Part shown: positions 20,483 to 45,113 of the stretch, piece by piece
Numbering within the stretch: the first letter of the stretch is position 1
Layout: every line of letters starts with the position of its first letter
Source of the DNA: Mesoplasma syrphidae
GTDB lineage: Bacteria; Bacillota_I; Bacilli_A; Mycoplasmatales; Mycoplasmataceae
Direction: 5' to 3'
DNA length: 64,000 nucleotides
Assembly (NCBI RefSeq): GCF_002843565.1
Contig: NZ_CP025257.1
Coordinates: forward strand, 620,001 to 684,000
Notes under the pieces: model-generated
What the model saw: the letters and a program-made list of their open reading frames with translations, nothing else
Database searches by the model: none
What the model was told of the DNA's origin: nothing
Translations under genes and position numbers: made by a program

Positions 20483-20499
20483 AAATAAACTCTCCTTTT

Positions 20500-22813: not shown

Positions 22814-22841
22814 AAATCACAAACTTATGTTTGTGATTTTT
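22812..22841. terminator. bidirectional intrinsic terminator
   Basis: Thirteen-base arms AAAAATCACAAAC and GTTTGTGATTTTT with a TTAT loop. It ends the membrane-protein gene on the plus strand and can end the lipoprotein array (last gene stop at 22903) on the minus strand. Confidence 0.9.
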
Positions 22842-22902
22842 ATATATATTTAGTTATCTTTTTGTTTCCTATGGGTAAAAAGTTATTTGTTATATTTGTT
22901 CA

Positions 22903-25023
22903 TTAAAGTTTAGATTCATACTTTCTAATCTCAAGATCAAAAAACTTTAAAGATCGTTGCTCTTTGCCAAGTCATCCAGATAAATTTAAATATGGATTTT
23001 CCGCATTCCAATCAAGCTTATCATCAAACAAATTTTTATCATTGCTTAAATTAAAATAGTTTTTCCCATTTCAAAGATTGTCATTTTCATTCATTGCATT
23101 AAAAGTTTTTCCCTTATCAAAAGGCATAAAAAGATTAAAAGTAGTTGTACCAATATTAAAAATATAAGACGCGTTTATCTCTACTGGGTCCTTTCCAGAA
23201 CCGTTACCTGTAGTTGTTTCTAAATAACTAATATTTGTATCATATGATGCTCACTTGTTAAAATTTGCAGAAGTAATATGTTTTCCTACAAAATTTCCAG
23301 TGTCAGAATTGGGTCTTGTATCAATTGACCCTACAACAAATTCCATTTTTGCTCCAAATCTACTGAAATCATAATTTTCTTCAGTAGTAACATAGTTTTT
23401 TTGGTTATCTTGAGCAAAGTTAATTGCTGTAACGCTATTTTTATCAATTTTAAAGCCTGTATCAGTAGAAATCTTATTAGCTGTACTAAAGTTATATCCA
23501 AAATCGTATTTGTTATTATGAATAGCTGTTTTACGCATAATTGCATTTCATGATTCAGCAAATGAATTTTGCATATTTTTTTGTACATCCAATGATGTTT
23601 TAAATATTGCATTCCTTGTAAAATTTCCAGTTGGTAGCTCACTAGTTCACATGACTTTTTTATTGACAATTGTTAAAGCATTGTATAATGATATTAGTCA
23701 TAAATCTTTTTTGTGAGCGTCAACTTTATCATTTTTATATGTTCAAGGCATTACTAAAGTTGGCAATTCCAATGAAATATCTTCATTCATTTTTAAACTA
23801 AGATTGCTTAGTCTAAAACTTCCATAACTATATGATTGTCCAACAATTTTGTCACGATTTGTTTGTCCAATATTATTAATGTCAAAAAAATTCTTTAGGT
23901 CATTATCATATTCTTCAACAATTTGATCAAAGTTTTTGACAACTTCTTTTAGCATAGTAACCGCATTTTCCTCTGATAACAGTTCAGTATTTTCTTTTTT
24001 CAAAATTAAACTATTTGCTAAAGGGTTTCGATGCAAATCATACATACGTTTAGTTTGTGTCATATTGCGACTATCACTTTTTAACATATTGGCATTAACA
24101 TAAATTTGCTCTGCTTCTGTAATTTTTGGAGCATATGTAAGATAATACTCAGTATTTTCAACATTGAGTTTTTCAACTGTTGAAGAAATAGCCTCTTTAA
24201 ATACATCTGAATTAATATAGTTAGCTATTGAACTTTCTATTTTGTCATCATAAGTTTTAAAGTCTAAACTGCTACTTTCTTTTAACAATGATGAGGCAAA
24301 CTGTGAACTCGTATTATTATACAACTCTTTTGGCAGCTCACGAACGATTTTTTCTACAAATGAAATTGTTGGACCTTCTTGACCAACTAAAATATGTAAT
24401 GGAATTTCCATTGTCTTAAACAACTCTTTTTGCCCCTCAGAATCTTTATTATACATATCTCTAGTAACCGTTGCCTGAATTGAATAAATTTGCTCCAATT
24501 TCTGGGTTTCAAGATTTGTATATTCTGTTTTTGTAAGCATAAAGTCTTTATCTCCAGAAATTTTAAATTCTCCAAGTGTAGCATCAGGTGAGCCCATATA
24601 AATATTTCTAAATTTAACAGCATTTTCACCTGTTGCTAGATTTGCTTGAATCATTTTGCTAAATTGTTCTTTAGGAAATAAAATATTTAAATCTTTGGCA
24701 AACTTAATACCATTTTCGTTATTTTCATGAAGGTCAAATGTTGTATTTGATTCGGCATCTTTATAAACTTCATTTAAATATTTCAAATTAAATAGTTCAT
24801 AGTTGCTTTGATCGCCTTCTTCACCAATTTGTCTAACAAATTTTTCAGCATTTTGGTTATAAACACTGCTTCAAATTCTGTTTAATTCATTTTGAAACTC
24901 TTTGATTAATTCATTTGAAATTGGTGGTACTTTTTCTTTTTCTTTTTTCCCACAAGCAGCAACTGACAATCCCGCAGTTGCAGTTAATGTAACTGCTCCT
25001 AATATTGTTAATAATTTTTTCAT
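22903..25023 (-). CDS. tandem-family lipoprotein A
   Basis: A 706-residue predicted surface lipoprotein. The signal is MKKLLTILGAVTLTATAGLS with lipobox SVAAC, Cys24. The mature part is mostly hydrophilic. It shares with its four relatives blocks such as RNIYMGSPDATLGEFKIS, MYNKDSEGQKELF, the LHRNPLANSLILKK block, GSFRLSNLSLKMN, ELPTLVMPWTYKNDKVD and the C-terminal YIFNIGTTTFNLFMPFDKGK and GKNYFNLSNDKNLF. It is the most divergent of the four contiguous copies and has its own C-terminal end, whereas B, C and D all end in FFQLR. Function is unknown. It is last in the array, with a TATAAT at 25057-25052 that may allow separate transcription. Confidence 0.88.
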
Positions 25024-25051
25024 ATTTTTTCTCTTTCACTCTATTTTCGTA

Positions 25052-25057
25052 ATTATA
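25052..25057 (-). promoter_or_regulatory. -10 element upstream of lipoprotein A
   Basis: A minus-strand TATAAT lies about 30 bases before the ATG of lipoprotein A. The same element in a similar ~100-base spacer is present before lipoprotein C. Confidence 0.4.
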
Positions 25058-25125
25058 TATTTTGAAAAACTGAGTTCCTTTCTGCGATTGGTTGTTTAAA
25101 ATTTGAGCTAATGGTCCAAAACTTT

Positions 25126-27207
25126 TTATCTAAGCTGAAAAAATGTCGCATTAATGCTGCTTCATCAATTATAAGAATCAGAAACATATGGATTACTTGC
25201 ATTTCAATCAAATTCAGCTTCCGTTGGTGAAAATAACTTTCGATCATTACTCAGGTCAAAATATTGTTTTCCGCTTCAATTATCATCAGTCGCAGCAGAT
25301 AAAATATCAAACCCTTTTCCTTGATCAATCGGTATAAACAACCTGAAATTAATTAATCCAATATTAAAAATATATGAAGAACTGGCATTGACTATAGTTT
25401 GCCCATTTCCTATGGCATACGAAGTTTGATTTCTTCAATTTTCCTTTGGATATTTACTTCCATAGCTTGTCAAACTTGCACCCGTCGTACTATGATTCCC
25501 AACTTCTCCTAAACTTTTATCAATTCCTAAAACCGTTTCAATTTTTGCTGAAAAACTGCTAAAGTCAAAATTGCATTCATCAGTTATATAATTTTTCCCG
25601 CTTCTTGCAAGGTCCACCCAAGTAATATTATCTCTAACCTTAAAAATTTCAGGTCATTTAGGATTATACACACGTTTTGAATATGATGAATTTTTATCCT
25701 TTTCAGTTCGCTCTAAAATTTCATTTCACTCAATAGAAAATGAATTTCTTATTTCAGATAAAGCTTCTTTAGAAATAGCAAACATACCACGACTAACATT
25801 TTCACGCTCTGTAAAATAGTTAGTGTTAACTGCCATAACTTTTTTATTGACAATGTTTAAAGCATTGTAAAGAGAAACTAATCAGCTGTCTTTTTTATCT
25901 AAGTCACTATAACTATCATTTCTGTAAGTTCAAGGAATTACCATAGTCGGCAATTCTAGAGAAACTTCATTATCTTCAATATTTATAAAAACATTGTTAA
26001 GTCTAAAATTTCCAAAACTATAGGTTTTATTAACTATTGATTCCCGATTAACATTTTTGTCAAGATATAAATCTAAAAAAGTATTTAGATCGTTTTCATG
26101 TTCATCAATATTTTGGTCTAAATCTTTGATCACTTCTTGAAGCATTACAGAAGCATCCTCTTCTTTTAAGACTTTTGTATCAGCTTTTTTTAAAATTAAA
26201 CTGTTAGCTAAAGGATTTCTTTGTAAATCAAACATACGTTTCGTTTCAACTTGTTTTTTATTGTCATTTCTTAGCATAGTTGAAGTTATTGATATTTGCT
26301 TCTCTTCTGAAATTTTAGGTCCAAATTTAATATTATATTGGCTTTCATTATTATTAATGCTTTCAATTTCTTTGATAATGGTATTTTTAAACTCATTTGA
26401 GTTAACTTGATTAGATAAACCCAACTCCAAATCATCATCATATGTTTTAAAATTTGCATCACTTCTTTTCATTCTTGAAGTCCCAAATTGTGAACCTTTT
26501 TCAGAAAATAAATTTTTGGGTAAATTGCGAGCAATTTTTTCTACCAAAGTTATTGCCACACCATCTTTCCCAATAATAATATTTAAAGGAATTTCAACTG
26601 TTTGGAATACACTTTTTTGACCTTCAGAATCTTTATGATACATATTTTTAGCAACTGTTGCTTCAATTGAATATAGTTTTTCTTGTTCTTGATTTTCTTT
26701 ATACTCAGTTTTGATAACATTAAATGGCTTGTCTTGAGCAATTTTAAAGTCACCAAGTGTAGAATCTGGTGAACCCATATATAAATTTCGATATTTGACA
26801 GCATTTTTACCCGTTGCCAAAGTTTTTTGAATTTTATCTGCGAACTGATTTTTAGGAAATAATTTATTTAAATCATAAACAAACTTTTCAGCATTTGATT
26901 TATCTTCATGAAGATCAAAAGTTCTTGTTCCCGGAATATGTTCATATTGACTATTTAAATAATTTAAATTAAAAAGTTGGTAATTTTCTTGGTCACCTTC
27001 TTCACCAATTTTTCTAACAAATTTTTCAGCATTTTGATTATAAACATCATTTCATAATTTATTTAACTCATCCTGAAATTCTTTAATTAGCTCATTTGAG
27101 ATTGGTGGCAATTTAGCATCATCTTTTTTTTGACCACAAGCAACAACTGATAATCCCGCCGTTGCCGTTAAAGTAACTGCTCCTAATATTGTTAATAGTT
27201 TTTTCAT
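25126..27207 (-). CDS. tandem-family lipoprotein B
   Basis: A 693-residue lipoprotein with the same signal as A and lipobox SVVAC (Cys24), followed by GQKKDDAKLPP. Family blocks include YRNLYMGSPDSTLGDFKIA, MYHKDSEGQKSVFQTVEIP, LQRNPLANSLILKKAD, GNFRLNNVFINI and ELPTMVIPWTYRND. The C-terminal third has VDLARSGKNYITDECNFDF and IFNIGLINFRLFIP and ends at NATFFQLR. Two consecutive UGA Trp codons occur near the C-terminus. It is clearly closer to C and D than to A in the C-terminal third. The spacer upstream of its start carries a fragment of a GH18 gene end (27241-27289). Function unknown; surface exposure is inferred from the lipobox. Confidence 0.88.
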
Positions 27208-27240
27208 AATTTATTTACTCTTTCTAATTTAACTTTGTGA

Positions 27241-27289
27241 TTAAATATATTTTTAATTACCGTTACCGCTTTTATAAAATCACATTCAT
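27241..27289 (-). pseudogene. remnant of a GH18 gene 3' end between lipoproteins C and B
   Basis: On the minus strand this spacer reads NECDFIKAVTVIKNIFN in one frame, matching the last residues of the intact GH18 protein at 31612-33546 (NEYDFTKVLTGDWKYV and stop). The bases between the remnant and the start of B also resemble those between the intact GH18 stop and the start of D. I infer that the block now encoding B was copied from the D locus together with the tail of the neighbouring gene. Confidence 0.6.
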
Positions 27290-27307
27290 ATTATTATTTA
27301 AAAGCTT

Positions 27308-29392
27308 TTATCTAAGCTGAAAAAGAACTGGAAGAATACTATTTAATCAACTACTTGATTCAAGAACGGCATATGGATTGACAGCATTTCAATCAAAATC
27401 GGCTTCTGTTTTTGTAAATAAGCTTTTGTCATTGCTTAAATCAAAATATTGTTTTCCATCTCAATTGTCATTCTTTGTAGCAGATAAAGTGTCAAAAGCT
27501 TTTCCTAGATCAAGGGGCAAATACATTCTAAAATTAATTAATCCTATATTAAAAATATAAGAAGAACTAACATTAGAATACGATTGAGAATCTCCTACAC
27601 GGTAAAAAGCTTTATTATTTTTAATTGGATTTTTAGAATACTTACTTCCTTGGCTTTCTAATGTCGCACCCGAAGCATGACTTCCAACGTTCCCTAAGTT
27701 TTTGTCAATTCCTAAAACTGTTTCAATTTTTGCTGAAAAACTGCTGAAGTCAAAACTACTTTCATCAGTTATATAATTTTTCCCACTTCTTGCAAGGTCC
27801 ACCCAAGTAACATTATCTCTAACCTTAAAAATTTTAGGCATTTTAGGGGTATACACATTTTCTGAAAATGATGAATTTCTATCTTTTTCAGTTCGTTCCA
27901 GTATTTCACTTCACTCAATAGAAAATGAATTTCTTATTTCAGATAGGGTTTTTTCAGAAACAGCAAACATACCCTTTTCAACAACTTCTTCGTTTTCCTT
28001 ATTATTATAATAATCAGCTCTAGTTGCCATAACTTTTTCATTTATAACTTTCAAAGAATTATATAGTGAATTTAGTCAAAGATCCTTTTTATTTAAATCA
28101 TTGTACTTATCATTTCTATATGTTCATGGAATCACCATTGTTGGTAGTTCAATAGTTTTTCCACTATTATTCATTTCTAAATTAATATTATTTAATCTAA
28201 AGTTTCCAAAACTATGAGTTTGTTGAATCATTTTTTCTTTAGCTTTTTGATCTTGAACATATAACCCTAAAAAGTTTGTCAAATCTTGATCATGTAAGCT
28301 AACACTCTTATCTAAGTCTTTAATGATTTCTTGAAGCATCATAGAAGCATCTTTTTCTTCTAAAACTTTTGTGTCAGCTTTTTTCAAAATTAAGCTGTTA
28401 GCTAAAGGATTTCTTTGTAAATCGAACATACGTTTTGTTTGAACTGCTCTTTTATTATCATTTCTAAGCATTGTAGAAGTCATAGCTACCTGACTTTCTT
28501 CTGAAATTTTAGTACCAAATTCAAGCTTATAAATGCTTTCGTTATTATTAAGGTCGGCGACTTCTTTATCAATAGTATTTTTAAACACTTCTGAATTAAT
28601 GTAGTTTGCCAATTTTAGTTGCAGCTCATCATCGTATGTTTTAAAAGCTGAATCAGTTTGTTTAATAATTGATGAGGCAAATTGTGATCCTTTTTCTGAA
28701 AATAATCTTTTGGGCAAATTGCTTACTATTTTCTCTATTAACGAAATAGTCGGCCCATCTTTTCCGATAATAATATTCATTGGAATTTCCATTGTTTGAA
28801 ATAAAACTTTTTGTCCTTCAGAGTCTTTATGATACATATCTTTAGTAATAGTTGATTGAATTGAGTATAACTTTTCGTTTTTTTCTCCCTCTACATATGC
28901 AGTTTTTGTGAGAACAAAGCCTTTGTCTGTAGAAATTTTAAATTCTCCAAGTGTACTTTGAGGTGAACCCATATAAATGTTTCTATACTTAATAGCATTT
29001 TCACCTGTTGCAATATTATCTTGGATCATACTTTCAAATTGCTCTTTTGGAAATAACTTGCTCAAATCATTAGAAAACATTTCAATATTTTTTTGGTCAT
29101 CATGTAGATTAAAAGAACCCTCTTTACGATTTCCATATTCACTCTCTAAATAATTTAAATTAAAAAGCTGATAGTTTTCTTTATCTCCACCTTCTCCAAT
29201 TTGTCTAACAAATTTATGCGCATTGGCATTATAAACACCACTTCAAATTTTATTTAGCTCATTTTCATATTCCTTAACAACTTCTGCTACACTTGGTGGT
29301 ACTTTGGGTTCTGTTGTTCCACAAGCAACCACTGATAATCCTGCAGTTGCTGTTAAAGTAACTGCTCCTAATATTGTTAATAGTTTTTTCAT
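27308..29392 (-). CDS. tandem-family lipoprotein C
   Basis: A 694-residue lipoprotein, signal as in A and B, lipobox SVVAC (Cys24), then GTTEPKVPPS. It is nearly identical to D: over a 318-residue stretch I count six differences, all in the C-terminal part of that stretch. Blocks include YRNIYMGSPQSTLGEFKIS, MYHKDSEGQKVLFQTMEIP, RMFDLQRNPLANSLILKK, GNFRLNNINLEMNNSG and VDLARSGKNYITDESSFDF. It ends FFQLR. The start has AAGGGAAAAA upstream. The spacer before it is like the spacer before A. The near identity of C and D beside more divergent A and B points to recent duplication or gene conversion. Confidence 0.9.
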
Positions 29393-29418
29393 TTTTTCCC
29401 TTTCACGCTATTTTTGTA

Positions 29419-29424
29419 ATTATA
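29419..29424 (-). promoter_or_regulatory. -10 element upstream of lipoprotein C
   Basis: A minus-strand TATAAT lies about 27 bases before the lipoprotein C start, in the same context as the one before lipoprotein A. Confidence 0.4.
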
Positions 29425-29493
29425 TATTTTGAAAAACTGAGTTTCTTACTGCGAATAGTTGTTTAAAAATTTAAACTAATGGTACAAAACTTT

Positions 29494-31578
29494 TTATCTA
29501 AGCTGAAAAAGAACTGGATTAATACTTCTTAATCAACTACTTGTGTCAAGAGCAGCATATGGATTGGTAGCATTTCAATCAAAATCGGCTTCTGTTTTTG
29601 TAAATAAGCTTTTGTCATTGCTTAAATCAAAATATTGTTTTCCATCTCAATTGTCATTCTTTGTAGCAGATAAAGTGTCAAAAGCTTTTCCTAGATCAAG
29701 GGGCAAATACATTCTAAAATTAATTAATCCTATATTAAAAATATAAGAAGAACTAACATTAGAAAACGATTGAGAATCTCCTACATGGTAAAAAGCTTTA
29801 TTATTTTTAATTGGATTTTTAGAATACTTACTTCCTTGGCTTGATAATCTCGCACCCGAAGCATGACTTCCAACGTTCCCTAAGTTTTTGTCAACTCCTA
29901 AAACTGTTTCAATTTTTGCTGAAAAACTGCTGAAGTCAAAACTACTTTCATCAGTTATATAATTTTTCCCACTTCTTGCAAGGTCCACCCAAGTAACATT
30001 ATCTCTAACCTTAAAAATTTTAGGCATTTTAGGGGTATAAACATCTTCTCGAAATGATGAGTTTATATTTTTTTCAGTTCGTTCCAATATTTCACTTCAC
30101 TCAATAGAAAATGAATTTCTTATTTCAGATAGGGTTTTTTCAGAAACAGCAAACATACCCTTTTGAACAACTTCTTCGTTTTCATTATTATTATAATAAT
30201 CAGCTCTAGTTGCCATAACTTTTTCATTTATAACTTTCAAAGAATTATATAGTGAATTTAGTCAAAGATCTTTTTTATTTAAATCATTGTACTTATCATT
30301 TCTATATGTTCATGGAATTACCATTGTTGGTAGTTCAATAGTTTGTTCACTATTATTCATTTCTAAATTAATATTATTTAATCTAAAGTTTCCAAAACTA
30401 TGAGTTTGTTGAATCATTTTTTCTTTAGCTTTTTGATCTTGAACATATAACCCTAAAAAGTTTGTCAAATCTTGATCATGTAAACTAACACTATCATCTA
30501 AGCCCTTAATGATTTCTTGAAGCATCATAGAAGCATCTTTTTCTTCTAAAGCTTTTGTGTCAGCTTTTTTCAAAATTAAACTGTTAGCTAAAGGATTTCT
30601 TTGTAAATCGAACATACGTTTTGTTTGAACTGCTCTTTTATTATCATTTCTAAGCATTGTAGAAGTCATAGCTACCTGACTTTCTTCTGAAATTTTAGTA
30701 CCAAATTCAAGCTTATAAATGCTTTCGTTATTATTAAGGTCAGCGACTTCTTTATCAATAGTATTTTTAAACACTTCTGAATTAATGTAGTTTGCTAATT
30801 TTAATTGCAACTCATCATCGTATGTTTTAAAAGCTGAATCAGTTTGTTTAATAATTGATGAGGCAAATTGTGATCCTTTTTCTGAAAATAATCTTTTGGG
30901 CAAATTGCTTACTATTTTGTCAATTAACGAAATAGTCGGTCCATCTTTTCCGATAATAATATTCATTGGAATTTCCATTGTTTGAAATAAAACTTTTTGT
31001 CCTTCAGAATCTTTATGATACATGTCTTTAGTAATAGTTGATTGAATTGAGTATAACTTTTCGTTTTTTTCTCCCTCTACATATGCAGTTTTTGTGAGAA
31101 CAAAGCCTTTGTCTGTAGAAATTTTAAATTCTCCAAGTGTACTTTGAGGTGAACCCATATAAATATTTCTATACTTAATAGCATTTTCACCTGTTGCAAT
31201 ATTATCTTGGATCATACTTTCAAATTGCTCTTTTGGAAATAACTTGCTCAAATCATTAGAAAACATTTCAATATTTTTTTGGTCATCATGTAGATTAAAA
31301 GAACCCTCTTTACGATTTCCATATTCACTCTCTAAATAATTTAAATTAAAAAGCTGATAGTTTTCTTTATCTCCACCTTCTCCAATTTGTCTAACAAATT
31401 TATGCGCATTGGCATTATAAACACCACTTCAAATTTTATTTAGCTCATTTTCATATTCCTTAACAACTTCTGCTACACTTGGTGGTACTTTGGGTTCTGT
31501 TGTTCCACAAGCAACCACTGATAATCCTGCAGTTGCTGTTAAAGTAACTGCTCCTAATATTGTTAATAGTTTTTTCAT
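29494..31578 (-). CDS. tandem-family lipoprotein D
   Basis: A 694-residue lipoprotein almost identical to C in both halves. In the C-terminal third I count five differences in about 110 residues, mostly in the GSHASGARLSSQGSKY region. The N-terminal signal and lipobox are the same. It starts 33 bases after the stop of the GH18 lipoprotein gene at 31612. No strong ribosome site is seen (AGAAAGAAAA). Coiled or repeat structure is not evident. The gene could be cotranscribed with the upstream GH18 genes, as I see no terminator between them. Confidence 0.9.
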
Positions 31579-31611
31579 AATTTATTTTTTCTTTCTAATT
31601 TAACATTGTCG

Positions 31612-33546: not shown

Positions 33547-33581
33547 ATTTTAATCTCCCAGTTTCCATTTTTTCATGCTTA

Positions 33582-33613
33582 AAAGTTATTTTTGAATAAT
33601 CAAAAATAACTTT
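33582..33613. terminator. perfect 14-base hairpin between the two GH18 genes
   Basis: The arms AAAGTTATTTTTGA and TCAAAAATAACTTT flank a four-base loop, just after the stop at 33618. On the minus strand only a short T run follows, so it may attenuate transcription or stabilise the 3' end rather than terminate fully. Confidence 0.6.
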
Positions 33614-33617
33614 AGTT

Positions 33618-36584
33618 TTATTTATTAGGGTTTAATACACCATCTGTTCAATGACCGCTAAGTGCTCTAGCAAAATCATATGCTTCTAGATAGGCAAGTC
33701 CATGTGATGTTAACGATTTAACAACCGGCTTATTAGAATAAATATCACGACCACGATCGTCATTCATTGATCATGTTCCAATATAAGCCAAACCATTTAA
33801 ATGAGCTCAGTTGTATAAATCTTTGGCATCTTCTAATGTAAATACTCCATGTACAGTATCATTTACACCAATCATTGGAGTCGCTCCAATTAGTTGGTAT
33901 AATCCACTATTCCCAATTGATACTTGTCCGTAGTTAGCCTCAATTGAAGTTGCCAAATTATTTTTTGTTGAATTAATAGCATTTTTTGCCAATTCAAAGT
34001 TTGTAATTTTATCAGAATCACGTGCTTTTGCATAAATTGGATCACCATAATCCATTAGCATTAAATTGATTACAGGTAAATCTTGTTGTCCAAGACCAGC
34101 TTTTTGAAATTCTTCAATGAAAATATTCATAACGTTGTAACCCACACTTGTTAATCCTGTTGGTAAGACAGGCAATGTAACTGAAAAATCTCAACTCTGA
34201 TCGTTTACTTTCATTTTTGCAATTGTTCTTGCCAATAAACGATTATCTTCATTTAATTCTTGAGCATGTCCTTCAATATCAAAATCAATTGCTTTTGGCA
34301 TTTTAACATCTGTTGTTCCATATTTTTTAGCAACTCCAACAAGTTCTTGTTGATATCCAACTAAAGCCTTTGTTAAATCTTCTTGAGCTTTTTTAGAATT
34401 TCCAGGATTTAGCTTGTTTGCCAAAGTTCAAGGATTTTTTTCAGTAAACCCACCAGTTGTTGCTCCACCATAAGCAACTTTGATGTTTTCAAAATTATTG
34501 CTTTCAGCTAATGGCTTCAGCATTTTTCCTCACAATTGAGTTTCTTCTCATCATGTATATCCTTCATTATCTTTTGCTTGTCCAGCAATTGACATTTCAA
34601 TAGCATCACCATGATGGTTAACTTGTTGAACAAAGGCTAGTGTTAAATGATCCATTGTAGGAACTTCTGTCATAATTTCTTTCATATCATTTCCCTGGTA
34701 TAAACCAGCATCTAAGTAAGGAGAAAAATATGTATTTGGATTTGCTTGTTCTTGCTTTGTAACCTTAGCTGTTCTATTAGGATTGGCTTCTTCTCATGAA
34801 CTATACATGCTTTTTCCTGGTCCAGTTGGCGGTGGCGGATTTGAACCTTCAGTTTCACCAGCACCTCCAGCTCCTTGCCCAGGTCCACCAATTCCAGGTC
34901 CTTCTCATGAACCTTCTCCAGGGTTATCTAAATCAGTATTTTTTTGAATATCTTTTTGATAATCAATTCCCCCGATTTTTATAACATCTTCAACTGATTT
35001 TGCTTCCTGAGGAATATCGCTGTCTTCCAGTATAGTCCCATTTAGCGCTTTTGCATATGTAAATTGCTCAAATCCTGATCCAGAACGAACATTTTGATTT
35101 AGGGCATTTTGATCTGCTTGTGCAGGTCCAGTTAACCCATTATCATCAAAGTAACTAGGAGCATCACGAGAAATATAAAACATTCCGATACCACCCAATT
35201 TTTCTGATTCTGCTCATTTTCTTAAATCTAAAGCGTTTTTAGGTGTGAAATTATAAGCAGCTTGTTCAGCACGACGACCAATTCAAGGAGTAACTTTAAC
35301 TTTTCTTGATGATTTATCTAAAGTTTCATCACTTCCATTATTAATTGTGCGATGCATTTTTTGTCAATTAATATGAGTTTTTAAAACTCCCGCTTTTGTA
35401 GTTTCTAAGACTCAATTTGGATCTGTAATTTCATTAGGAACTGTTAAATATCCTGCGACTAAATTTAATCTAAAATTCATTCCCAAATATTTTGTAAAGT
35501 TGTATAAAGGGAATGCTTCATCTCCAAGCAATTTTAAACTTCCTGTCTCTAAAAATCCATCACTAATTGCTACACCATCTTTAGTTGACATAACTAGTGA
35601 TAATTGAACATCATAGCCAATATCTTTTTCAACAAGAATTTTTAAAGCACTTGCTAATAATCTTTGAGAATCAGCATAGTTTCCACTTGCTGACAAATAA
35701 GGAGCAGCAAAGTAAAAATCAAACTTTTTAGTTTCATATTTTTCAGAAATTTTTTCTAAAACTCCAGCTAACTGCTCGGGAGTTTTATTATTTTGTCAAG
35801 CTGTATGTCATAGCGAATTTGCAAAAGGACCAAATGATATACGAAGATTATCAGAATTTAAATGTCCTGTGTTTTCATTACCTTCTCATTTAGTTTGTTT
35901 TCCCGTTGTTCCCGTTCAATTACGGTAACGATCATTAAATCATTTAGCATACTCTGTTTCATCTTTTTCATCTGCTAAAATTCCTTGATTTCCCTTTGCA
36001 GGAGCAGCGTTTCACATTGGCACTAGTTCACCAGTGTCAGATGCATTTTGCATAAATCCTAAAGTGATTTCACTTGAATCTGTAATAACATCTTTTTTAC
36101 CAGCTATTTCGCCCAAATCATTATAAACTATATTATTGGTTTTATGTTTTTCTAACGATTCCATTGCTTCAGTTCTAGCTGCAGAACTTCGACCCTTTTC
36201 TTTCATTAAATATTCAGCAGTATCTTCTACAATTCCCATATCCGCATATGGAGTAAACTGTAGCTTATCTTCTACTTGCAAAATATTTTTGTCGGCCAAG
36301 GTAGACTTATCACTTGGATTGGCAGCTTGTTCTAATGTTCTGCTTACTTTTTGAGAATAATCTGTCTTCAAAACTTCTTGTCATTTTTGATTTTTAACAG
36401 ATTGCTCTTTAATTTTATAAAGTTCTTCTAAATTTCCTTGACCTTTTCATTTATCTCCAGTTTCAAATCCATCATTTTTTTCAGGTTTTGGAATTGGTGT
36501 TATTGATGAAAAACAAGATACTGTTGTTGTCAATAGTGGAACAGTTATTGTAACTACTCCTAAGACTGTTAATAATTTTTTCAT
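33618..36584 (-). CDS. two-domain GH18 lipoprotein (first domain degenerate, second intact)
   Basis: A 988-residue lipoprotein in one frame when UGA is Trp. The signal ends in lipobox TVSC (Cys24). Residues ~110-480 form a GH18-like domain (TPYADMG, ITLGFMQ, LRISFGPFAN, GMNFRLNLVAGY, VTPWIGRRAEQA, GIGMFYISRDAP), in which the catalytic strand reads KFDFYFAAPYL instead of DFDIEG; the acid/base Glu is lost. A Gly/Pro-rich linker follows (about 545-590), containing GIGGPGQGAGGAGE and PPPPTGPG. The second GH18 domain is complete: YFSPYLDAGLY, MDHLTLAFVQQ, AIDFDIEGHAQ, LPVLPTGL, INLMLMDYGD, GATPMIGVND and GTWSMNDDRGR. The first domain may bind glycan; the second would hydrolyse it. Ribosome site AAAGGTC. 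Confidence 0.9.
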
Positions 36585-36647
36585 ATCTTAAGACCTTTCT
36601 TCTTGTTTCGACATTATTTGTTACACATATAAACTTTTATATAGCTA

Positions 36648-38978
36648 CTAATTTTTATGTAGTGCTTTTAAATACTCATTTAATGTTCCATCTTCTTGAA
36701 GCTCATAAAATGCTTTTTCATAAGCTTGTAAATCTGGTGAATTTCCTTCCAAATATTGATTGCTATCGGCAATAACCTCGTCTAATTGTTCAATTAAAGG
36801 CGTTTTAACTTCTGCAACCAAATCGCTATTTTCCTTAGAAATAACAGCTGGTCCAATTGGATCTAATCTTTTATCCTTTTTAGAAACAACTTCTTGTTTA
36901 GGCTTTTCAGTTATATTGAAATATTTTTTAACTAAGCTGTCCAATTCTTTGACATTTACATATTTTTTGTCATTTCTAGCTGCCACTTCTTTTAATAATT
37001 TTTGATTTTCAGTTTTTAAATGATTATTAGTTTCAGCAATACTTTCTTTAAGAACAGAGGCCTTACTTTCAGCAATTTTTTTATCAAAATTGTTTTTTAA
37101 GACATCAATTTCTTTATTTAATGACTTCGTTTTTGATGCAGCAGTTTTGGATTGAGCCTTTTTATAATTATCAAACTGCTTTTTTACTTCAGCCAAAATT
37201 TCTAACTTGATTTTTTCAGAATCAATAGCTTGGCTCGGTTGCAAATTATTAAATTCATTTTTTACTTCGTTTATACTTTCAGCTAAATCATTTAAATTAA
37301 GTTGAAATTTATTAAACTCAGATGAAATTAAATGATTTTGTGATTCAACTGCTTCATTTACAAAATTCATTGTTTGTTTATGCAAAACTTCAGCTTTGTC
37401 ATTTGAAGTTAATTTTAAAACTTGCTGAGCTAAGTCTTCATAATTTTTTGACTGAGCATTAACTAATTCAACTGTGTCTTTAACTTTTTTGGAGTCAGCT
37501 AAAACCTTACGTTCATTTTCTAATAAAATTTCATGAATCATTTTCAAGTTTGATTGTAAAACATATTCCAACTCGGCATTTAGGGCATGAACTTCTTGTA
37601 CTAAACTTTCCTTATGATCAGGTGAGTTATTATTATTTTGCAATTCAACTAAGGCAGTTTTGAATGAGTCAGTAATTTCTTTTTTAATATTGCTTACTTG
37701 TTCTTCTGAAACAAATGATTTACAATAATCCATTAAATTTTTAATAGAGTTTTTAGACTCTTCAGTTTCTTTTCGCAGGCTTTCAATTTCACTAACAGTT
37801 GATGCTTTTTCTAATTCAGCTGTTTTAATTTGTAATTCTTGAACAGCTTTTATATTTTCTTGAATTTTAGAAACAATTTCATTTTTAGTTAATTCTAAAT
37901 CTTCGTGCATTACTAAATTTTGAGTATCATTAGATATACTTTCAACTTGACTAGCAAAAACAAATAGCTCTTGTTTCAAGTTTTCAATATCTTGCTCTAG
38001 CACCGTATTTTGAAGAATTCCATCATTAAACTGATTTAATTCAATTTGTTTTAATTTTTCATAAATCATAGTTAGAATTTCGTTTTTTGTAGATTCTAAA
38101 TCATGTTTTAAAACTAAGTTTTCTGAATTTTTTTCTATTTCATTTATTTGATTTAAGAAGTAATTGATGTCATTTCTTAATGACTTAACTTCTTTGCCTA
38201 TTTCTTCACTTTGAGACGCCATTTCACTAATTTGCAAAATGTTTATATTTTTGAATTTATTTTTGATCTTATCTACAATTTCAGCTTTAACAGCTTCCAA
38301 ATCTTTTTGTAAAACAACCTTAGAAGAAGTTTGTTGTATGTTTTTCATTTCATTTGCAAAGTTAGCCAAATCAATTTTTAGTCTGTTAATCTCACTATTG
38401 TCAATTTGAGGATTTTGTTGAAACTCTTTGAAGGCATTTTGTTGAGTTTCAATGGTATCAATTTTTTTCTCAATGTTAGTAATAGTTTTTACCTTCAAAG
38501 TATCTAGCATCGCTTGCAGTTCTTCAATTTTTTTCAAAACTTCAGGTTCATTTAATGTTGCTAGTCTAGTTTCAGCTTCTTGTTGAACTATTTTGTTTTG
38601 ATTATTTTTAGTTTCATTTTCTAAAAATGATTTTGAAGTTGCTTGTAAACTATTAATTGTCTGAATAATTTCTTTTTTCAAAGCGCTTTCCAAACCATCA
38701 ATTTTAGAATCCATAAATGAAACTACCTTATTTAAATCTTGATTTTGACTTTGTTTTTCATAAATTGAATTTGCTTTATTAAGATTATTAAAAGAAGCTT
38801 CAACTTTTACATTTTGCTGTCTTTCATCAATTATGTTGTCATAAAGAGATTCTATTTGAATAGCTGCATCATTATATGAATTACATATTTTTACTACTTT
38901 GTTTTCATCATTTTTTATGTAAAAATAGTTTCCAATTTTTTCAATAAAAAACTTAGAATGATTATTGTTTTTTAACAT
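36648..38978 (-). CDS. long coiled-coil protein
   Basis: A 776-residue protein without signal peptide or membrane segment. The N-terminal ~45 residues look globular (FFIEKIGNYFYIKNDENKV, then a YNDAAIQIESLYDN segment), resembling a small beta domain. From about 60 to 690 the sequence is Glu/Lys/Gln/Asn-rich heptad-like coiled coil with imperfect repeats of 80-90 residues containing the pattern LVLKHDLESTKNEIL / LVMHEDLELTKNEIV / VVLQKDLEAVKAEIV. The last ~80 residues are less regular and end in LNEYLKALHKN. It starts 18 bases after the ABC ATPase gene stop, which implies cotranscription and a role linked to that ABC system, perhaps a cytosolic scaffold. There is no internal UGA. No family recognised. 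Confidence 0.85.
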   Translation of the reverse strand: MLKNNNHSKFFIEKIGNYFYIKNDENKVVKICNSYNDAAIQIESLYDNIIDERQQNVKVEASFNNLNKANSIYEKQSQNQDLNKVVSFMDSKIDGLESALKKEIIQTINSLQATSKSFLENETKNNQNKIVQQEAETRLATLNEPEVLKKIEELQAMLDTLKVKTITNIEKKIDTIETQQNAFKEFQQNPQIDNSEINRLKIDLANFANEMKNIQQTSSKVVLQKDLEAVKAEIVDKIKNKFKNINILQISEMASQSEEIGKEVKSLRNDINYFLNQINEIEKNSENLVLKHDLESTKNEILTMIYEKLKQIELNQFNDGILQNTVLEQDIENLKQELFVFASQVESISNDTQNLVMHEDLELTKNEIVSKIQENIKAVQELQIKTAELEKASTVSEIESLRKETEESKNSIKNLMDYCKSFVSEEQVSNIKKEITDSFKTALVELQNNNNSPDHKESLVQEVHALNAELEYVLQSNLKMIHEILLENERKVLADSKKVKDTVELVNAQSKNYEDLAQQVLKLTSNDKAEVLHKQTMNFVNEAVESQNHLISSEFNKFQLNLNDLAESINEVKNEFNNLQPSQAIDSEKIKLEILAEVKKQFDNYKKAQSKTAASKTKSLNKEIDVLKNNFDKKIAESKASVLKESIAETNNHLKTENQKLLKEVAARNDKKYVNVKELDSLVKKYFNITEKPKQEVVSKKDKRLDPIGPAVISKENSDLVAEVKTPLIEQLDEVIADSNQYLEGNSPDLQAYEKAFYELQEDGTLNEYLKALHKN

Positions 38979-38996
38979 ACATTCTCTTTTCTATGC

Positions 38997-40526
38997 CTAT
39001 CAAAAAAGTTGATTTTTTTGTTCGGCAATTTCTGAATTTTCATTAATTAGCACAATGTTAATTCGATTAATTTTAAGATTTCTTTTTTTTGTAATTTTTG
39101 ATCCATTTTTATTTGTATTTTTTAAAATTTGAGCAAACATTTTTGAGGTAGTTTCATCTTTAACATTTCTTAAGAGAATTTCTACTGCTAATTTAGCAAT
39201 TCCCTCTTCATACTTAGTTAAAAAATTTTCTTTAAGCAAAATTTTTACAGAATTTGTCAATTCTTTTTTATCTATATCTGACAGAATTTCGTTTCGATTA
39301 AAAAATATATCAAGAATTTCAATAATTTTGTTTGTTACTTCTGTATTGATTTGCTTATTTCTCATTGTTTCAAGTAGCATTTTATTTTCTTCAATTAATG
39401 CTGTTTTTTCAGTACGATATTCTTCACTTGAAGAGTTTTTTATTTTGCGCTTAAGTTTATACCCTGATTTAGCTAATAAAGAGAAAAGTTTAATTCTACT
39501 TACTGTTGTTAACTTTTTAAAGTAAAACTCTAACTCTTTTACTTGCTCAGAATATACCAAAGAATTGTAAATTGATTCAAAATTCATTGGGATATTAACA
39601 ATTTCTTCTAAAAACAGATTGTATTTAATTATTAACGCCATCAAAAAGTTTATTTTGTCGCTTTCCTGCTTTAAAACACCAATCTCTAAAGTATTATTTT
39701 CAATATCTTCACTAAAAATTTCTAAACCTGAACTTAATAGATGAGCTTTAAAGTCTTTATAACTAGAATGCTTGGCAATATCTGTTTTAAAATACAGTTT
39801 ACTTCTAAAATATAGCTTAAGATTTTTTAATTCTGATTGATAAATAATTTGTCCGTGTTCAATTAAAATAATGTCATCTACCATATCAAAAACTTCATCA
39901 ATATTATGAACAACTAGTAAAACAGTTTTATCCATATTTTTATATTCTAGTAATATTTCTTTAATTTTTTTTCTTCACACTGAATCCAAATTTGCTCCAG
40001 GCTCATCTAAAATAATTAAATTAGGATCTTTTAATAAACTGATAATTAGATTTAATCTATTTTTCATTCCTCATGAAAAATCTTTTAATTTCTTATCACT
40101 ATGCTCTTTCAATTGAAACAGTTCCAGCAACTTGTCAATTTGCTCTTCTGCATATTTTTTAGATAAACCCATAACTTTTGAAATCTGATTCAAATACGTG
40201 ATCAGCTTAATATCGTAAGTAATAAAATCCATTTGAGTATAAAACCCAATTTCGCTATTAATCTTGTAACCAGAAATTGACTTGCGTCGATATCCATTAA
40301 TATCAATTGTGCCTTTATAACGAGCATAAGAACCCATAATTGAATTTAAAATAACTGATTTTCCTGAACCACTTCGTCCAATTAAAATTGTTACTTTATT
40401 TTTTTTAATACCAAAATTTAGTGGACCAATTCTTTCTTTATAATTAAATTTTTTAAAATAATTAGTAAATCGAATTATATCATCGCTACTTTGCTCTGCT
40501 GGTAATAGTAATGTTTTGTCGCTCAT
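38997..40526 (-). CDS. ABC transporter ATPase with long C-terminal extension
   Basis: A 509-residue cytosolic ATPase. Walker A GRSGSGKS, Q loop GFYTQMDFITYD, signature DFSWGMKNRL (the family's LSGGQ/LSGGM form is altered but recognisable), Walker B LIILDEPGANLDS and H-loop LLVVHNIDEV are present in the first ~240 residues, so it should hydrolyse ATP. About 260 further residues follow: an alpha/beta segment (to ~350) and a helical Lys/Glu-rich tail. The apparent end at QNQLF in the standard code is UGA; the true stop is the next codon, TAG. The ATG immediately follows the permease stop, so the two are translationally coupled. Confidence 0.9.
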
Positions 40527-42455
40527 TTATTTCAAATCCTTTCTAATAAATAGATATACAGATATTGCAGCTGTTAATAACAGAAAGGCAACTTGAATTG
40601 CTAAATATAACTGAATATTTGGTCTTTGAGTTCCACTAATTTTGTTATTCTCATCGTTTACAACAACTTTGAATTTGACATTTGTGAAAAATATATTGTC
40701 TTGTGATTCAAAATTAATAGAAGACTTGCTGCCAAAGTTAAATCAATATTGATCTCACTCTTTTCCTGCATAGTGATTGAAATAGCTATTCATATTAGCT
40801 GGAAATAAAACTAAGTTTAATAATTGGTAGTTTTTCATATAACGTTCATAATCATTAAAGTTTTCATTGCGAAGTACTTCAGATTCTGTAATAATTACAT
40901 AATTAGATGTTTGATTAATAAAGTTATCCTCTAAAATTCTAATAAACAACTCAAAATACATTTGTTCACTAAAAGCATTCATCAGTGCTTTGTAGTTATT
41001 AGCATATTCAGGTTCATTTCTATTTGTGCTAAAAGATAAGTCATAGTTTTTTGAACTTTCAGTTGCAAAATAGTTGTTAAAAATGTAACTTTGAAAAAAA
41101 GCATTTGTAATATTGGCTTCAATATTTTTATTAGTTTCAGGTTCTACTTCTTTGCCTGGTTTTGACATTGTAGAAACAGCACTATTGATTTGTAAAGACA
41201 AGTATTTACCATAATTGTTATAGTTTGAACTTCACATTTTTTCTAGCATTTCTTGTTCATTAGAAATTGCTGGATAAACACTTTTGAAAGTACTTTCATA
41301 ATAATTAAAAAAATCGATTAAGTCCGATAAAACAGCCTTATGTTCTGCATCATCTGTAGTTTCATAAACATCTTTAATTGATTCAATATTTTTGAACTTA
41401 TTTTTAAAGCTAAGTTTGATATCAACAACATCGCCCTTTGAAAAATCAGTTACTCCACTTCTGCTAGTGATAGTATCAATTTTCAATTTTGTTGTTGTAC
41501 TTCCATTAACTAAAAGGGGCTCTTCTTTAGTATTAATAATCCCTAAATCACTCCACATAACCATTCGCGAATTAAGTTCTTCTCTACCTTCATAGTTTGC
41601 AATTGTATAACTTTTGCTAATATAATAATCATTTATATATTTACTTAGATGAGGAAATTTAATATGACCCTTATTAACATTTTCGTTAAAAATAAGAGCA
41701 TTATTAATTTCTGATCCCTTGTACATAAATGAACTTCCCGATCTGTCAACAAATGTTATTTGTGTGTCATTCATTTTAGTTGCAAAAAATTGTTGCGGCA
41801 AACTTGATATGAATAATGACAATAGCACAAAAGACAAAATTATTGATACAATTTGTTGTTTGCAAAATAATGTTAAGAAAAATAAAAAACTAATGAAAAA
41901 GATTGAACAGGCTGTTTGGTAAGCTAAATTAGTAAATAAGTATCTAATTCCATATGAATTTCCTGTATTTAAAAGCACCATTGATACCGTTGATAAAATA
42001 TTTAATGCAAGTATTCCTAAAAAAATTGCTACTCATATACTTATTAAAATTGTTATTCTTTTTGTTTTTTGCTGAATAATAATTGTCATAGTTTGATCTT
42101 CAAATTTGTTATGCAAAAAATATGTCACTAATCTAGAAACTAAAATTAATAATAAAACCGTATTAATTAAGTAATATCAGTTGAAAACTACAATGGGTGA
42201 ACTTTGAACTTTTGCCATAATCCCAAAAACAATTGCAAATACAAAACCAATTCCAAAAATAATTAAAAAAGCTTTATCAATAAAGATCAGTTTTAAAAAA
42301 TAGACTAGTAAGTTATAAAAACTTACATTTTTTCCTTTCTCTTTTTCTTGCTTTCTTGTTTTTTTATTTAATGCAGCTGAAGAAATTCTTGTAATATTTG
42401 TTAATTCTGGTTCATCCAGAATTTCTTCTACTTCAGTGTTTATATTTGATACCAT
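40527..42455 (-). CDS. ABC-2-type permease with large extracytoplasmic domain
   Basis: A 642-residue membrane protein. A cytosolic N-terminus (~65 residues, Lys/Glu-rich) precedes membrane segments at about 70-95, 105-125, 140-165, 185-205 and 210-230. A hydrophilic outer domain of roughly 370 residues follows, and one final membrane segment, LYLAIQVAFLLLTAAISVYL, ends in a short basic tail. This topology fits ABC-2-type exporters that work as homodimers with a big external loop. It includes several UGA Trp codons. The start is the ATG at 42455, five bases after AGGAGG, not the TTG at 42458. The ATPase gene starts at the next base after its stop. Substrate unknown; export or surface assembly is inferred. 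Confidence 0.83.
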
Positions 42456-42500
42456 CAATACCTCCTAAGATACCTATTTAATAAATCTAAATATTTATTT

Positions 42501-42986
42501 TTATTTCAAAATAGCAACTAAGTCACCTTTTTTGACTTCTCCAAATTTTAATATTTTCAAAGTCTTTTCATTAACATTAGTTAATAAGATCGGAACATTT
42601 ATAATCTGGTCAATCTCTTCTTTTAAATCCGTCTTATTTTTTTTGAGACTAATGTCGCATAATGTACGTAATGCTTTAACCTTTTTGCCATTTTCAGTGT
42701 TTGAAACAAATTTGTCAATTTTTCAATGATTATCTTCAAGTACCAAAAAAAGTAACATTTGAATTCCTGCCTTGGTTTTTATTTTATAAGCTCTCTTTGT
42801 TTTCAAGATCATAACAATTTTTCCTGAAATTGGAGAAACAAAGGAATGTTTCAAAGTTTGTAAAACAAACCCTTCTTTCGCAATAATTTCTTTAATAGAA
42901 CTATTACTAATAGCGCTAAGATCAAGAATGCTGCCATCAGCTGGAGCATAAATTTTTATAGCTCTATTTTGTTTAATAAACATCAT
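42501..42986 (-). CDS. PTS EIIA(Glc)-like protein lacking the phosphorylation histidines
   Basis: A 161-residue protein. The N-terminal ~90 residues resemble the glucose-type EIIA domain: IYAPADGSILDLSAISN, an EGFVLQTLKHSFVSPISGKI strand pair and ILKTKRAYKIKTKAGIQ. In active EIIA the last block is TKHAigI and the next is LIHvGIDT; here these are TKRAYKI (His to Arg65) and LLFLVLED (His to Phe80). Both the phosphate-accepting and the supporting His are therefore missing, so it cannot act in phosphotransfer. The fold may be reused as a regulatory or binding module. It lies 45 bases upstream of the ABC permease and 59 bases downstream of lipoprotein H. Start at 42986 (double ATG), AAGGTAA upstream. 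UGA Trp at residue 88. Confidence 0.75.
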
Positions 42987-43045
42987 TAATTATTTACCTT
43001 ATCCTTTTACTACGTTTTATATAAAACTGATTTTTATATAATTAG

Positions 43046-45031
43046 TTAATCTAAAACAAATATTGCAAAAGTTTCTCGTTCGTAATATACTTGATTAACT
43101 CAAGCTCCACGATCACGATTGTCACCATAAAAATCTTTGTCTTCAATATAATTAAATGCATCTTTTGCATCATAAAAACTATCTTGGTTACCATAACCCA
43201 TAAATGGCAATTTTGCTTGAATTCTTGTTAAACCTAAGTTAACCTTATACTCAACATCAATTTGTCTAATTTGTTGCAGAGTAATTCCTTTTTTAAATCC
43301 AAGTCCAATTTTTCCATCAGGATATTTTTTGAAAACCAAATAATTTTGAGCCGCTTTGTTAAAAGTCATAAGAATATTTAAACCTTCAAATTGAACTCTC
43401 TCATCTTCTTGAAAGTCACTATAAGCGTTCATAATAGATCATGTATTGGTATTACCAATTATTCTTTCTAGAGATTGCTCTTTATTTTCATTTCCTTCAA
43501 TCATATTAATAATTTCTTGTCAGCTAACACCAAATGAATTATTTCGAATGTTTTCTTTGAAACTATCCTCTAGATCGAATAGCCTTTCTGCTCTTGAACT
43601 TGCATCAGCATTGGCTTGCAGACTTTTTTCATTTAACACCAAGATTGCTTCATACAATGAAGCCAAAAAGGCATCACCCTTATCAGTAAACTCTTCTGAT
43701 ATTGTATTTGAAAATGTTCATGGAATTTGAATTGTTGGAATTGGTAAGGCTACATCTGAATTAGTTCCATCATTGATTAGTATTTCAATATTTGATAATG
43801 CAAAATTACCATATGTGTATATTTGCTCAACAATTTCATTAGCCTCACTTGTATTTGGAACTACTGCTTTTAAAAATTCTCTTGCTTTGTTATCAAAATT
43901 TCCAAAGTTTTTATCAAAATCAATAATGGTTTTTTTAAGTTCGGTAATTGCAACATTTTTGTCTAACGCCTTAGTTTCTTTTGCTTTTAAAAATAAACTA
44001 TTGATCATAGCATTATTTCCCATATCTACTCAAAATTTAGATTGCTTAAAAGTACCACCTTCAAATAAAGTAGCAGATGTTTTGACACTCTCAGAAGTTA
44101 CAATATCGCCTTTAAAATTAATTTGAGAAGGGAACTCTTCAGTCAGAATTTCTTCAATTGACTTTTTTAAGTCTTCTTTAAAAACATCAGTATTAATGAA
44201 CTTGGCTATAGATTCATTAAGGTTTCCATAACTTTTAAAATTAGAGCTTATTTCTTTTAAGTCATCATATTTAAGTTGAGTTGAAACTTTATTATTTGTT
44301 TCTTTATTGTTATATAGCATTGTTGGCAATTTTGTAGTTACTTCTTCAATTAAATTCATGATCACTCCTTCTTGTCCAATAACAATTTTTAAAGGCATCT
44401 CATAAGTTTGATAGGCTGTTTTGGTTCCTTCAGCATCTTTAAAATACATATCACGAGAAATATTCATTTCAATAGTATAAATTTGCTCATCCTTAATTAT
44501 TGAATTAGTCAACTTGAAATCTTTGTCCTGGGCTATTTTAAATCCCCCCAAAGTTGCATCAACTGAACCCATATAAATATTTCTATATCGTGTTGCATTA
44601 TCACCAGTTTCTAAAGTTAAGCGAATTTCTTCAGCAAATTGTTGTTGAGTAAAAAGTTGCACTAAATCTTTTAACATAAGTACTTCGGATTCTTTTCCAT
44701 CATTTCGTAGGTTAAAAACTTTTTCAGACTCATTAGACTCGTTTTTAAAATTATTTGACAAATAATTAAAATTAAAAAAGTTGTATGTCCCTTGATCTTC
44801 TCCGTCTTTAATAATTCTTGTGAATTTTGATTGGTTTTCTGCAAGATTGTAAACTTTTGTTGTAATTTTATTTAGATCTTCTTGAAATGCCTTAATAATT
44901 TCCTCAATAGTTTCTTCAACAGGTGGATCAATTTCATTTCCTTCATTTTTATCTTTTGAACAGGCAATAACTGATAAACCGGCGGTTGCTGTCAATCCAA
45001 TAGCTCCTAATATAGTTAATAGTTTTTTCAT
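43046..45031 (-). CDS. lipoprotein H, distant member of the tandem family
   Basis: A 661-residue lipoprotein. The signal MKKLLTILGAIGLTATAGLS has lipobox SVIAC (Cys24) and is followed by SKDKNEGNEIDPPVEE. It shares with lipoproteins A-D the order of blocks RNIYMGSVDATLGGFKIA, MYFKDAEGTKTAYQTYEMP, SLFLKAKETKALDKN, GNFALSNIEILIN and PIPTIQIPWTFSN, but lacks the C-terminal third found in those (IFNIGLINFR and DLSNDK blocks). It heads the gene set EIIA-like, permease, ATPase and coiled-coil protein. A run of 16 T precedes it by about 80 bases, a position where homopolymer slippage could change expression. Function unknown. Confidence 0.87.
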
Positions 45032-45113
45032 ACTTTTTTACAAATTCCTTTCAAAAGTACTTGTCTATTTTTATATAAAATATGTACTTAATTTCCATAT
45101 AGTTAACTCTAAC

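What the first reader, a model, noticed from the sequence alone, without database searches (positions are those of the whole stretch)
22903..45031. Candidate surface system: lipoproteins, EIIA-like protein, ABC-2 exporter, coiled coil and GH18 enzymes in one run
Ten genes lie in the same direction with short spacers: lipoprotein H, EIIA-like, permease, ATPase, coiled-coil protein, two GH18 lipoproteins and four lipoproteins of the same family as H. Stop and start of permease and ATPase are adjacent and the coiled-coil gene follows 18 bases later. The same lipoprotein family at both ends suggests one functional unit. I infer a machine at the cell surface that binds or degrades a GlcNAc polymer (such as insect chitin), with the ABC part moving or assembling the lipoproteins or taking force to them through the coiled coil. 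The function is inference; the layout is seen.
Basis: partly seen in the sequence, partly recalled or inferred. Interest (0 to 1): 0.75.

Follow-up and report, generated by a model that had tools for sequence, protein, structure and literature searches.

The report
Lipoprotein–ABC surface module in Spiroplasma relatives
An insect-associated wall-less bacterium carries a gene run built around an ATP-driven membrane protein pair and its partner surface lipoproteins; the same core recurs across its relatives, sometimes with a long cell-interior coiled coil fused to the ATPase, which suggests an undescribed machine working the cell surface from inside, while the chitinase genes beside it are a local addition.

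Summary
The layout is real: 11 (not 10) minus-strand genes at 45031-22903 with gaps of 0-102 bp. Comparison with 60 genomes of the family separates core from passengers.

Core: lipoprotein (LipH superfamily) + ABC-2-type permease + ATPase. The full-length permease was found only in three families of the order, up to about 14 copies per genome. Genome-wide, 41 of 55 LipH-superfamily genes lie within 3 kb of a permease (2.0 expected); permease and lipoprotein co-diversify (Mantel r 0.94). AlphaFold gives the permease a PmtD/NosY-like membrane part with a ~390-residue extracellular domain between helices 5 and 6. LipH folds confidently but matches no solved structure.

The coiled coil belongs too: fused to the ATPase (896-1024 aa) in genus g7 and G059, a neighbouring gene in the window, a second copy in the same genome and two relatives.

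Not core: the EIIA-like protein has lost both phosphorylation histidines; the GH18 genes look like intact chitinases, but GH18 is unlinked to the permease family-wide (1/30 within 3 kb; 0.8 expected).

Most likely an ATP-driven surface device coupling cytosolic ATPase/coiled coil to extracellular lipoproteins; a peptide or lipid exporter is the main rival. Mechanism is inference.

The parts
43046..45031 (-). LipH, lipoprotein 661 aa (core partner lipoprotein)
   Evidence: lipoprotein signal NF038029; no Pfam family; AF2 pTM 0.78 and no PDB match; superfamily linked to permease genome-wide
42501..42986 (-). EIIA-like protein without active-site histidines (accessory; only here and in M. seiffertii)
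   Evidence: PF00358 1.9e-16; H75 to R, H90 to F against 1f3g/2gpr; M. seiffertii orthologue K/F; canonical copy next to enzyme I keeps both His
40527..42458 (-). ABC-2 type permease: 5 TM, extracellular domain about 221-612, then TM6 (core; TTG at 42458 is followed directly by ATG)
   Evidence: AF2 pLDDT 85 pTM 0.79; NosY/ABCG/PmtD fold over the TM part; PmtD by profile 4.6e-5; family distribution
38997..40526 (-). ABC ATPase 509 aa with C-terminal extension; FSWGMKNR signature (core)
   Evidence: PF00005 2.4e-23; closest solved NBDs ABCA3/ABCA4; signature shared by 41 permease-adjacent ATPases
36648..38978 (-). cytosolic coiled-coil protein 776 aa, no signal peptide or TM
   Evidence: heptad z 4.1; relatives in the second own copy, M. 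seiffertii and G058 by hhalign 98.6%; coiled coil fused to ATPase in genus g7 and G059
33618..36584 (-). GH18 lipoprotein 988 aa: N-terminal part that looks like a degenerate GH18 domain plus intact C-terminal GH18 (accessory)
   Evidence: DFDIEG at 767, FDFYF at 288; same place in M. seiffertii
31612..33546 (-). GH18 lipoprotein 644 aa, N-terminal region of Ig-like look plus GH18 (accessory)
   Evidence: matches exochitinase 9buf and Pyrococcus chitinase 2dsk; DFDIEG at 413
29494..31578 (-). lipoprotein of the LipH family (694 aa)
   Evidence: 97% aa identical to the next copy, dN/dS about 0.39
27308..29392 (-). lipoprotein of the LipH family (694 aa)
25126..27207 (-). lipoprotein of the LipH family (693 aa)
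22903..25023 (-). lipoprotein of the LipH family (706 aa)
45100..45175 (-). approximate site of the intrinsic terminator (hairpin plus T16) separating RNase J from LipH
   Evidence: sequence; fold -16.6 kcal/mol, z -4.6
33574..33617 (-). AU-rich hairpin between the two GH18 genes, possible terminator or attenuator (approximate position)
   Evidence: sequence; -13.1 kcal/mol, z -6.5
22809..22844 (.). hairpin after the last lipoprotein, between convergent genes
   Evidence: -17.4 kcal/mol, z -8.2

Best explanation
The core of the run is a lineage-specific ATP-driven surface module. Two permeases and two ATPases would form a type V (ABC-2) ABC complex whose large ectodomains, between TM5 and TM6, sit over the extracellular exit and work on the partner LipH-type lipoprotein. 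The cytosolic coiled coil, a separate protein here and part of the ATPase in some relatives, ties the ATPase to something inside the cell or multimerises the complexes. ATP hydrolysis is proposed to drive movements of the ectodomain and lipoprotein, as FtsEX and NosDFY work on extracytoplasmic partners, rather than only pumping a solute. GH18 enzymes and the histidine-less EIIA are additions of this species and M. seiffertii: the enzymes may be presented at the same surface, and the EIIA may bind the ATPase as dephospho-EIIAGlc binds MalK. Shown: the parts, linkage, predicted architecture, co-diversification and coiled-coil fusion. Inferred: complex formation, mechanical action, ligand, and the roles of EIIA and GH18.
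For: LipH-superfamily genes within 3 kb of a permease 41/55 against 2.0 expected. Lipoprotein at position -1 in 38/71 and ATPase at +1 in 51/71 permease loci. Mantel r 0.94 between permease and lipoprotein distances in 14 loci of genera g9/g10-type genomes. Large conserved ectodomain with invariant residues R298, E510, Y537, F573, I581, Q586, N588 and a confident AF2 model. Best structural neighbours over the TM part are NosY and ABCG, then PmtD. Coiled coil fused to the ATPase in one genus and G059 and adjacent elsewhere, against 6/381 background genes. In outgroup families f9/f11 the ATPase-permease pair persists, often with a ~530-577 aa membrane-anchored neighbour.
Against: No direct evidence of a complex or of mechanical action. 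The closest sequence relative of the permease with a solved structure, PmtD, is a true peptide exporter, and the NBD resembles ABCA lipid movers. The NosY match covers only the TM part and has E 0.08. Many g8 loci lack a recognisable lipoprotein next to the pair, and most ATPases of g8, g9 and g10 have no coiled coil. Lipoprotein linkage is inflated because the profiles were seeded mostly from permease neighbours.
Confidence: 0.4

Rival explanations
1. An ABC-2 exporter or immunity system: it expels membrane-active peptides (host antimicrobial peptides, bacteriocins) or exports its own peptides, with the lipoprotein as extracellular binder, as in PmtCD or LanFEG/LanI.
For: PmtD is the best sequence match of the permease in PDB (4.6e-5); ATPase scores drrA 5e-38 and lantibiotic-protection ABC 2e-31 in NCBIfam (both far below cut-off); wall-less insect associates are exposed to such peptides (inference); lineage expansions would suit diverse peptides.
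Against: Known immunity lipoproteins are small and those ABC-2 permeases lack a 390-residue ectodomain (own knowledge); a long coiled coil on the ATPase has no role in that scheme.
Confidence: 0.3
2. A lipid mover: the permease ectodomain and lipoprotein carry host or own lipids to or from the membrane, ABCA-like.
For: NBD is closest among solved structures to ABCA3/ABCA4/ABCA1 (best 1.5e-38); ABCG sterol transporters share the TM fold; these bacteria take lipids from hosts (own knowledge).
Against: ABCA ectodomains lie after TM1, not between TM5 and TM6 (own knowledge); the LipH model matches no lipid-binding fold with confidence.
Confidence: 0.15
3. The whole run is a chitin/GlcNAc utilisation locus in which the ABC pair serves the GH18 enzymes.
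For: Two GH18 lipoproteins in the run with intact DxDxE; the long two-part GH18 holds the same place in M. seiffertii.
Against: GH18 within 3 kb of a permease in 1/30 cases family-wide, 0.8 expected (the weaker excess within 20 kb is 9 against 3.6); EIIA is not a working PTS part; ABC-2 systems are not sugar importers (own knowledge).
Confidence: 0.07
4. Chance neighbourhood: a common ABC pair lying amid unrelated, tandem-amplified lipoprotein genes that are frequent in these genomes.
For: Lipoproteins are frequent (19% of background genes of 400 aa or more); two of the four distal copies are a recent duplication.
Against: Linkage recurs in several genera, 41/55 against 2.0 expected, with co-diversification.
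Confidence: 0.05

Closest known systems
PmtCD (phenol-soluble modulin exporter, type V ABC)
   Same: Permease profile positions 18-197 match PmtD by sequence and by fold; separate ATPase gene beside it.
   Different: PmtD chains are about 250 aa with no large ectodomain; no partner lipoprotein or coiled coil.
NosDFY-NosL
   Same: Best structural match of the TM part is NosY; an ABC-2 pair acting with extracytoplasmic proteins and a lipoprotein (own knowledge).
   Different: NosY has no ectodomain of this size; NosD and NosL show no homology to LipH in any result here; a copper maturation role is not indicated.
FtsEX (with PcsB/CwlO/EnvC)
   Same: Works-like analogy only: ATPase inside, large extracellular loop controlling an extracellular partner (mechanotransmitter, PMC6355983).
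   Different: FtsX is a type VII (ABC3) permease; here type V with the ectodomain between TM5 and TM6; the coiled coil here is cytosolic.
ABCA/ABCG lipid and drug exporters
   Same: NBD closest to ABCA3/4; TM fold shared with ABCG.
   Different: Split subunits, different ectodomain position, lipoprotein partner.
GH18 chitinases of the Pyrococcus ChiA / exochitinase type
   Same: Sequence match and DFDIEG motif.
   Different: Membrane-anchored lipoproteins with extra N-terminal regions.

Membership tests
Type V (ABC-2) ABC systems | Six TM permease with type V fold and separate NBD | tested here: met
   AF2 model and Foldseek to NosY, ABCG, PmtD (prob 0.99-1.0, but E 0.08 or worse); PmtD profile hit
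Type V (ABC-2) ABC systems | Intact ATPase motifs | tested here: met
   Walker A GRSGSGKS, Walker B LIILDEP and H-loop read; variant signature FSWGMKNR
FtsEX / MacB / LolCDE (type VII) | Four TM with ectodomain between TM1 and TM2 | tested here: not met
   Five TM, then ectodomain, then TM6
PTS EIIA (glucose type) | Phosphorylatable active-site histidine (H90) and H75 | tested here: not met
   Replaced by F and R; the canonical own copy keeps both
GH18 chitinase | DxDxE catalytic motif in a GH18 sequence | tested here: met
   DFDIEG in both genes and PDB chitinase match of the 644-aa protein; Pfam PF00704 itself does not ring
GH18 chitinase | Chitin hydrolysis | not testable with these tools
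   Needs an assay
Lantibiotic immunity LanFEG/LanI | Two small ABC-2 permeases plus a small lipoprotein | tested here: not met
   One 643-aa permease, lipoproteins of 661-706 aa; NCBIfam score 109 against cut-off 310
MOLPALP lipoproteins (TIGR04547) | Full-length model match | tested here: not met
   No LipH-type window protein matches; single weak hit among 20 relatives and a signal-region hit of the GH18 protein
MIB-MIP system | Homology of lipoprotein to MIB/MIP | tested here: inconclusive
   No such family named in Pfam or NCBIfam scans, not compared directly
Mechanotransmitting ABC complexes (function) | ATPase-driven change of an extracellular partner without transport | not testable with these tools
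   Needs biochemistry

The most novel reading that the evidence does not exclude
A new class of ABC mechanotransmitter on a type V scaffold: in wall-less bacteria, an ATPase carrying or recruiting a long cytosolic coiled coil is coupled through a permease with a TM5-TM6 ectodomain to dedicated surface lipoproteins of unmatched fold, making an ATP-driven link between the inside of the cell and its adhesive or enzymatic surface.
Probability: 0.2. Interest if true: 0.8.

Novelty: new variant of a known kind. Interest (0 to 1): 0.52.

Why it matters
It would define a widespread undescribed lipoprotein-ABC module of insect- and plant-associated mollicutes, amplified to a dozen or more copies in some genomes, and turn loose 'hypothetical lipoprotein / ABC transporter' annotations into one testable system. 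If it acts mechanically, it would extend the mechanotransmitter idea from type VII to type V ABC proteins and give wall-less cells an energy-driven handle on their surface.

Tried and rejected
PTS/sugar sensing through EIIA: rejected, both histidines lost. A recurrent EIIA partner: the other EIIA hits near permeases that I checked are domains of large PTS-type proteins; the stand-alone EIIA-like gene is found only here and in M. seiffertii. GH18 as core: rejected by linkage. MOLPALP membership: no full-length match. Viral or phage origin of LipH: no confident BFVD match. Defence system: PADLOC gives only generic ATPase-domain hits. Fold of LipH: no PDB match by structure or profile. The first hhalign round had wrong sequences in two groups through a loose coordinate match; repeated correctly, where lipH-LPspi dropped from 98 to 86% after splitting groups; reversed controls gave at most 2%. 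A first attempt to search named genomes with the wide permease alignment failed for lack of conserved stretches and was repeated with five close sequences. Literature searches for the module found nothing, in an open-access library only.
Full report
Where it is. The window is bases 620001-684000 of a 908,214-bp single-contig genome read with code 4. A published table lists four species in the Seiffertii clade, with M. syrphidae at 918 kb draft (PMC6117150); by elimination the window is probably M. syrphidae (inference). The two other genus members (G053, G054) lack the permease, so the system is accessory within the genus.

The reading frames, the abutting permease and ATPase, the 18-base gap to the coiled coil and the lipoprotein family at both ends are all as described. 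Upstream, a hairpin followed by 16 T lies after RNase J; downstream a hairpin lies between convergent genes; a further strong AU-rich hairpin separates the two GH18 genes, and the distal lipoproteins are spaced by about 100 bp. One transcript for all eleven is therefore unlikely (inference).

The core. A search of 60 family genomes with the permease found it in 42; with the family alignment, full-length matches occur in this family and in two more of the order (f9 with 5 genomes, f11 genus g50 with 6), the other order-level hits being weak N-terminal ABC-2 matches. I fetched 60 regions, most of them around permeases, and called genes. Of 71 permeases, 51 have the ATPase directly downstream and 38 have a lipoprotein of at least 400 aa directly upstream; 43 have such a lipoprotein within two genes, against 17/78 for background genes. 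Some genomes carry tandem lipoprotein-permease-ATPase units.

The lipoproteins are divergent. Profile comparison links LipH to partners in Spiroplasma-like genera (86-96%) and to partners in genus g7 (83%), with reversed-profile controls at 2% or less; links are stronger between neighbouring groups than end to end. Two further lipoprotein families near permeases (LP3, LPcit) are not related to LipH by this test. Genome-wide, 41 of 55 superfamily members (E below 1e-20) lie within 3 kb of a permease against 2.0 expected at random positions. The profiles were seeded mainly from permease neighbours, so this is an overestimate; in the single-sequence search, by my own count, 11 of 16 longer hits outside the window run still lie within about 6 kb of a permease. 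Distances of permease and lipoprotein correlate at r 0.94 over 14 loci, no shuffle of 2000 reaching it; co-duplication as an operon explains part of this.

Structure. The permease model (pLDDT 85, pTM 0.79) shows five TM helices, an ectodomain from about 221 to 612 and a sixth TM helix. Its TM part resembles NosY, ABCG and PmtD; the ectodomain has no match in the list. In ABCG proteins the TM5-TM6 loop roofs the exit path (own knowledge), so this domain would sit over the exit. LipH (pLDDT 77, pTM 0.78) matches nothing confidently in PDB or BFVD. The ATPase has intact Walker motifs and an FSWGMKNR signature shared by 41 permease-adjacent ATPases; its nearest solved relatives are ABCA NBDs.

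The coiled coil. In genus g7 and G059 the ATPase is 896-1024 aa, with a 500-600 residue C-terminal coiled coil (heptad z 7-14). In the window, in the second copy of the same genome (G000:C1 about 337600-346040), in the second copy of M. seiffertii and in G058 it is a separate gene nearby. The M. seiffertii orthologue of the window protein is shorter (365 aa), with a similar N-terminal part but weak heptads. W. lucivorax, G002 and the Spiroplasma-like genera have none. Background frequency of such genes is 6/381, and those six include module genes. A part fused in some species and adjacent in others is classical evidence for a physical partner.

What is not core. The EIIA-like protein lacks both histidines, here and in M. 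seiffertii, while the cell keeps a normal copy beside enzyme I. EIIAGlc binds the MalK transporter in its dephospho form (own knowledge; entry 4jbw is among the hits), so a regulator of the neighbouring ATPase is a guess only. GH18: one gene keeps its place in M. seiffertii, but family-wide GH18 is not close to permeases (1/30 within 3 kb, 0.8 expected; 9/30 against 3.6 within 20 kb).

Mechanism. Shown: parts, linkage, predicted architecture, fusion. Inferred: that the ABC pair acts on the lipoprotein. Mechanotransmission (FtsEX, NosDFY) explains ectodomain, partner lipoprotein and coiled coil together; peptide export or immunity explains the PmtD kinship and the expansions; lipid movement explains the ABCA-like NBD. 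Sequence cannot decide, hence 0.4 / 0.3 / 0.15.

Novelty. All engine parts belong to known superfamilies, but I found no description of this combination in the searchable papers, and LipH, the permease and the coiled coil have no full-length family in Pfam or NCBIfam. I call it a new variant of a known kind.

Noticed in passing
G000:C1 about 337600-346040 (L031): A second copy of the module in the same genome: ATPase 419 aa, lipoprotein LP3, permease, coiled coil 477 aa, LipH-type lipoprotein; M. seiffertii has the same set at G055:C1 (L033).
   Followed up: yes
L128, L129, L131 (family f9): Near the ATPase-permease pair lies a 571-576 aa protein with an N-terminal TM anchor instead of a lipobox, about the size of the lipoprotein partners; profile comparison shows no homology to them.
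   Followed up: partly
window 33618-36584: The 988-aa GH18 protein appears to carry a second, degenerate GH18-like domain (FDFYF in place of DFDIEG) before the intact one.
   Followed up: partly
window 54507-55556 and 55991-57085: Two formate/nitrite transporter genes in tandem on the plus strand.
   Followed up: no
window 13276-21861: Opp-type oligopeptide ABC operon (two permeases, two ATPases, SBP_bac_5 lipoprotein) downstream on the same strand.
   Followed up: no
window 22322-22813: Small membrane protein with a weak OPT-transporter match (24.1 bits against cut-off 25.8), possibly a fragment.
   Followed up: no
window 6367-6445: Ribosomal protein L21 leader RNA (Rfam RF00559), just above the gathering score.
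   Followed up: no
L042 10787-11716: The ATPase reading frame of one module copy is broken into pieces, so some copies decay.
   Followed up: no
G010:C1:543999-545648: LipH-type gene in a genome without the permease; the tool reports an open frame of 13,911 aa around it, perhaps masked N or an odd assembly.
   Followed up: no
G032:C1:640273-643446: The only GH18 gene in the family set that directly abuts a permease of the family.
   Followed up: no
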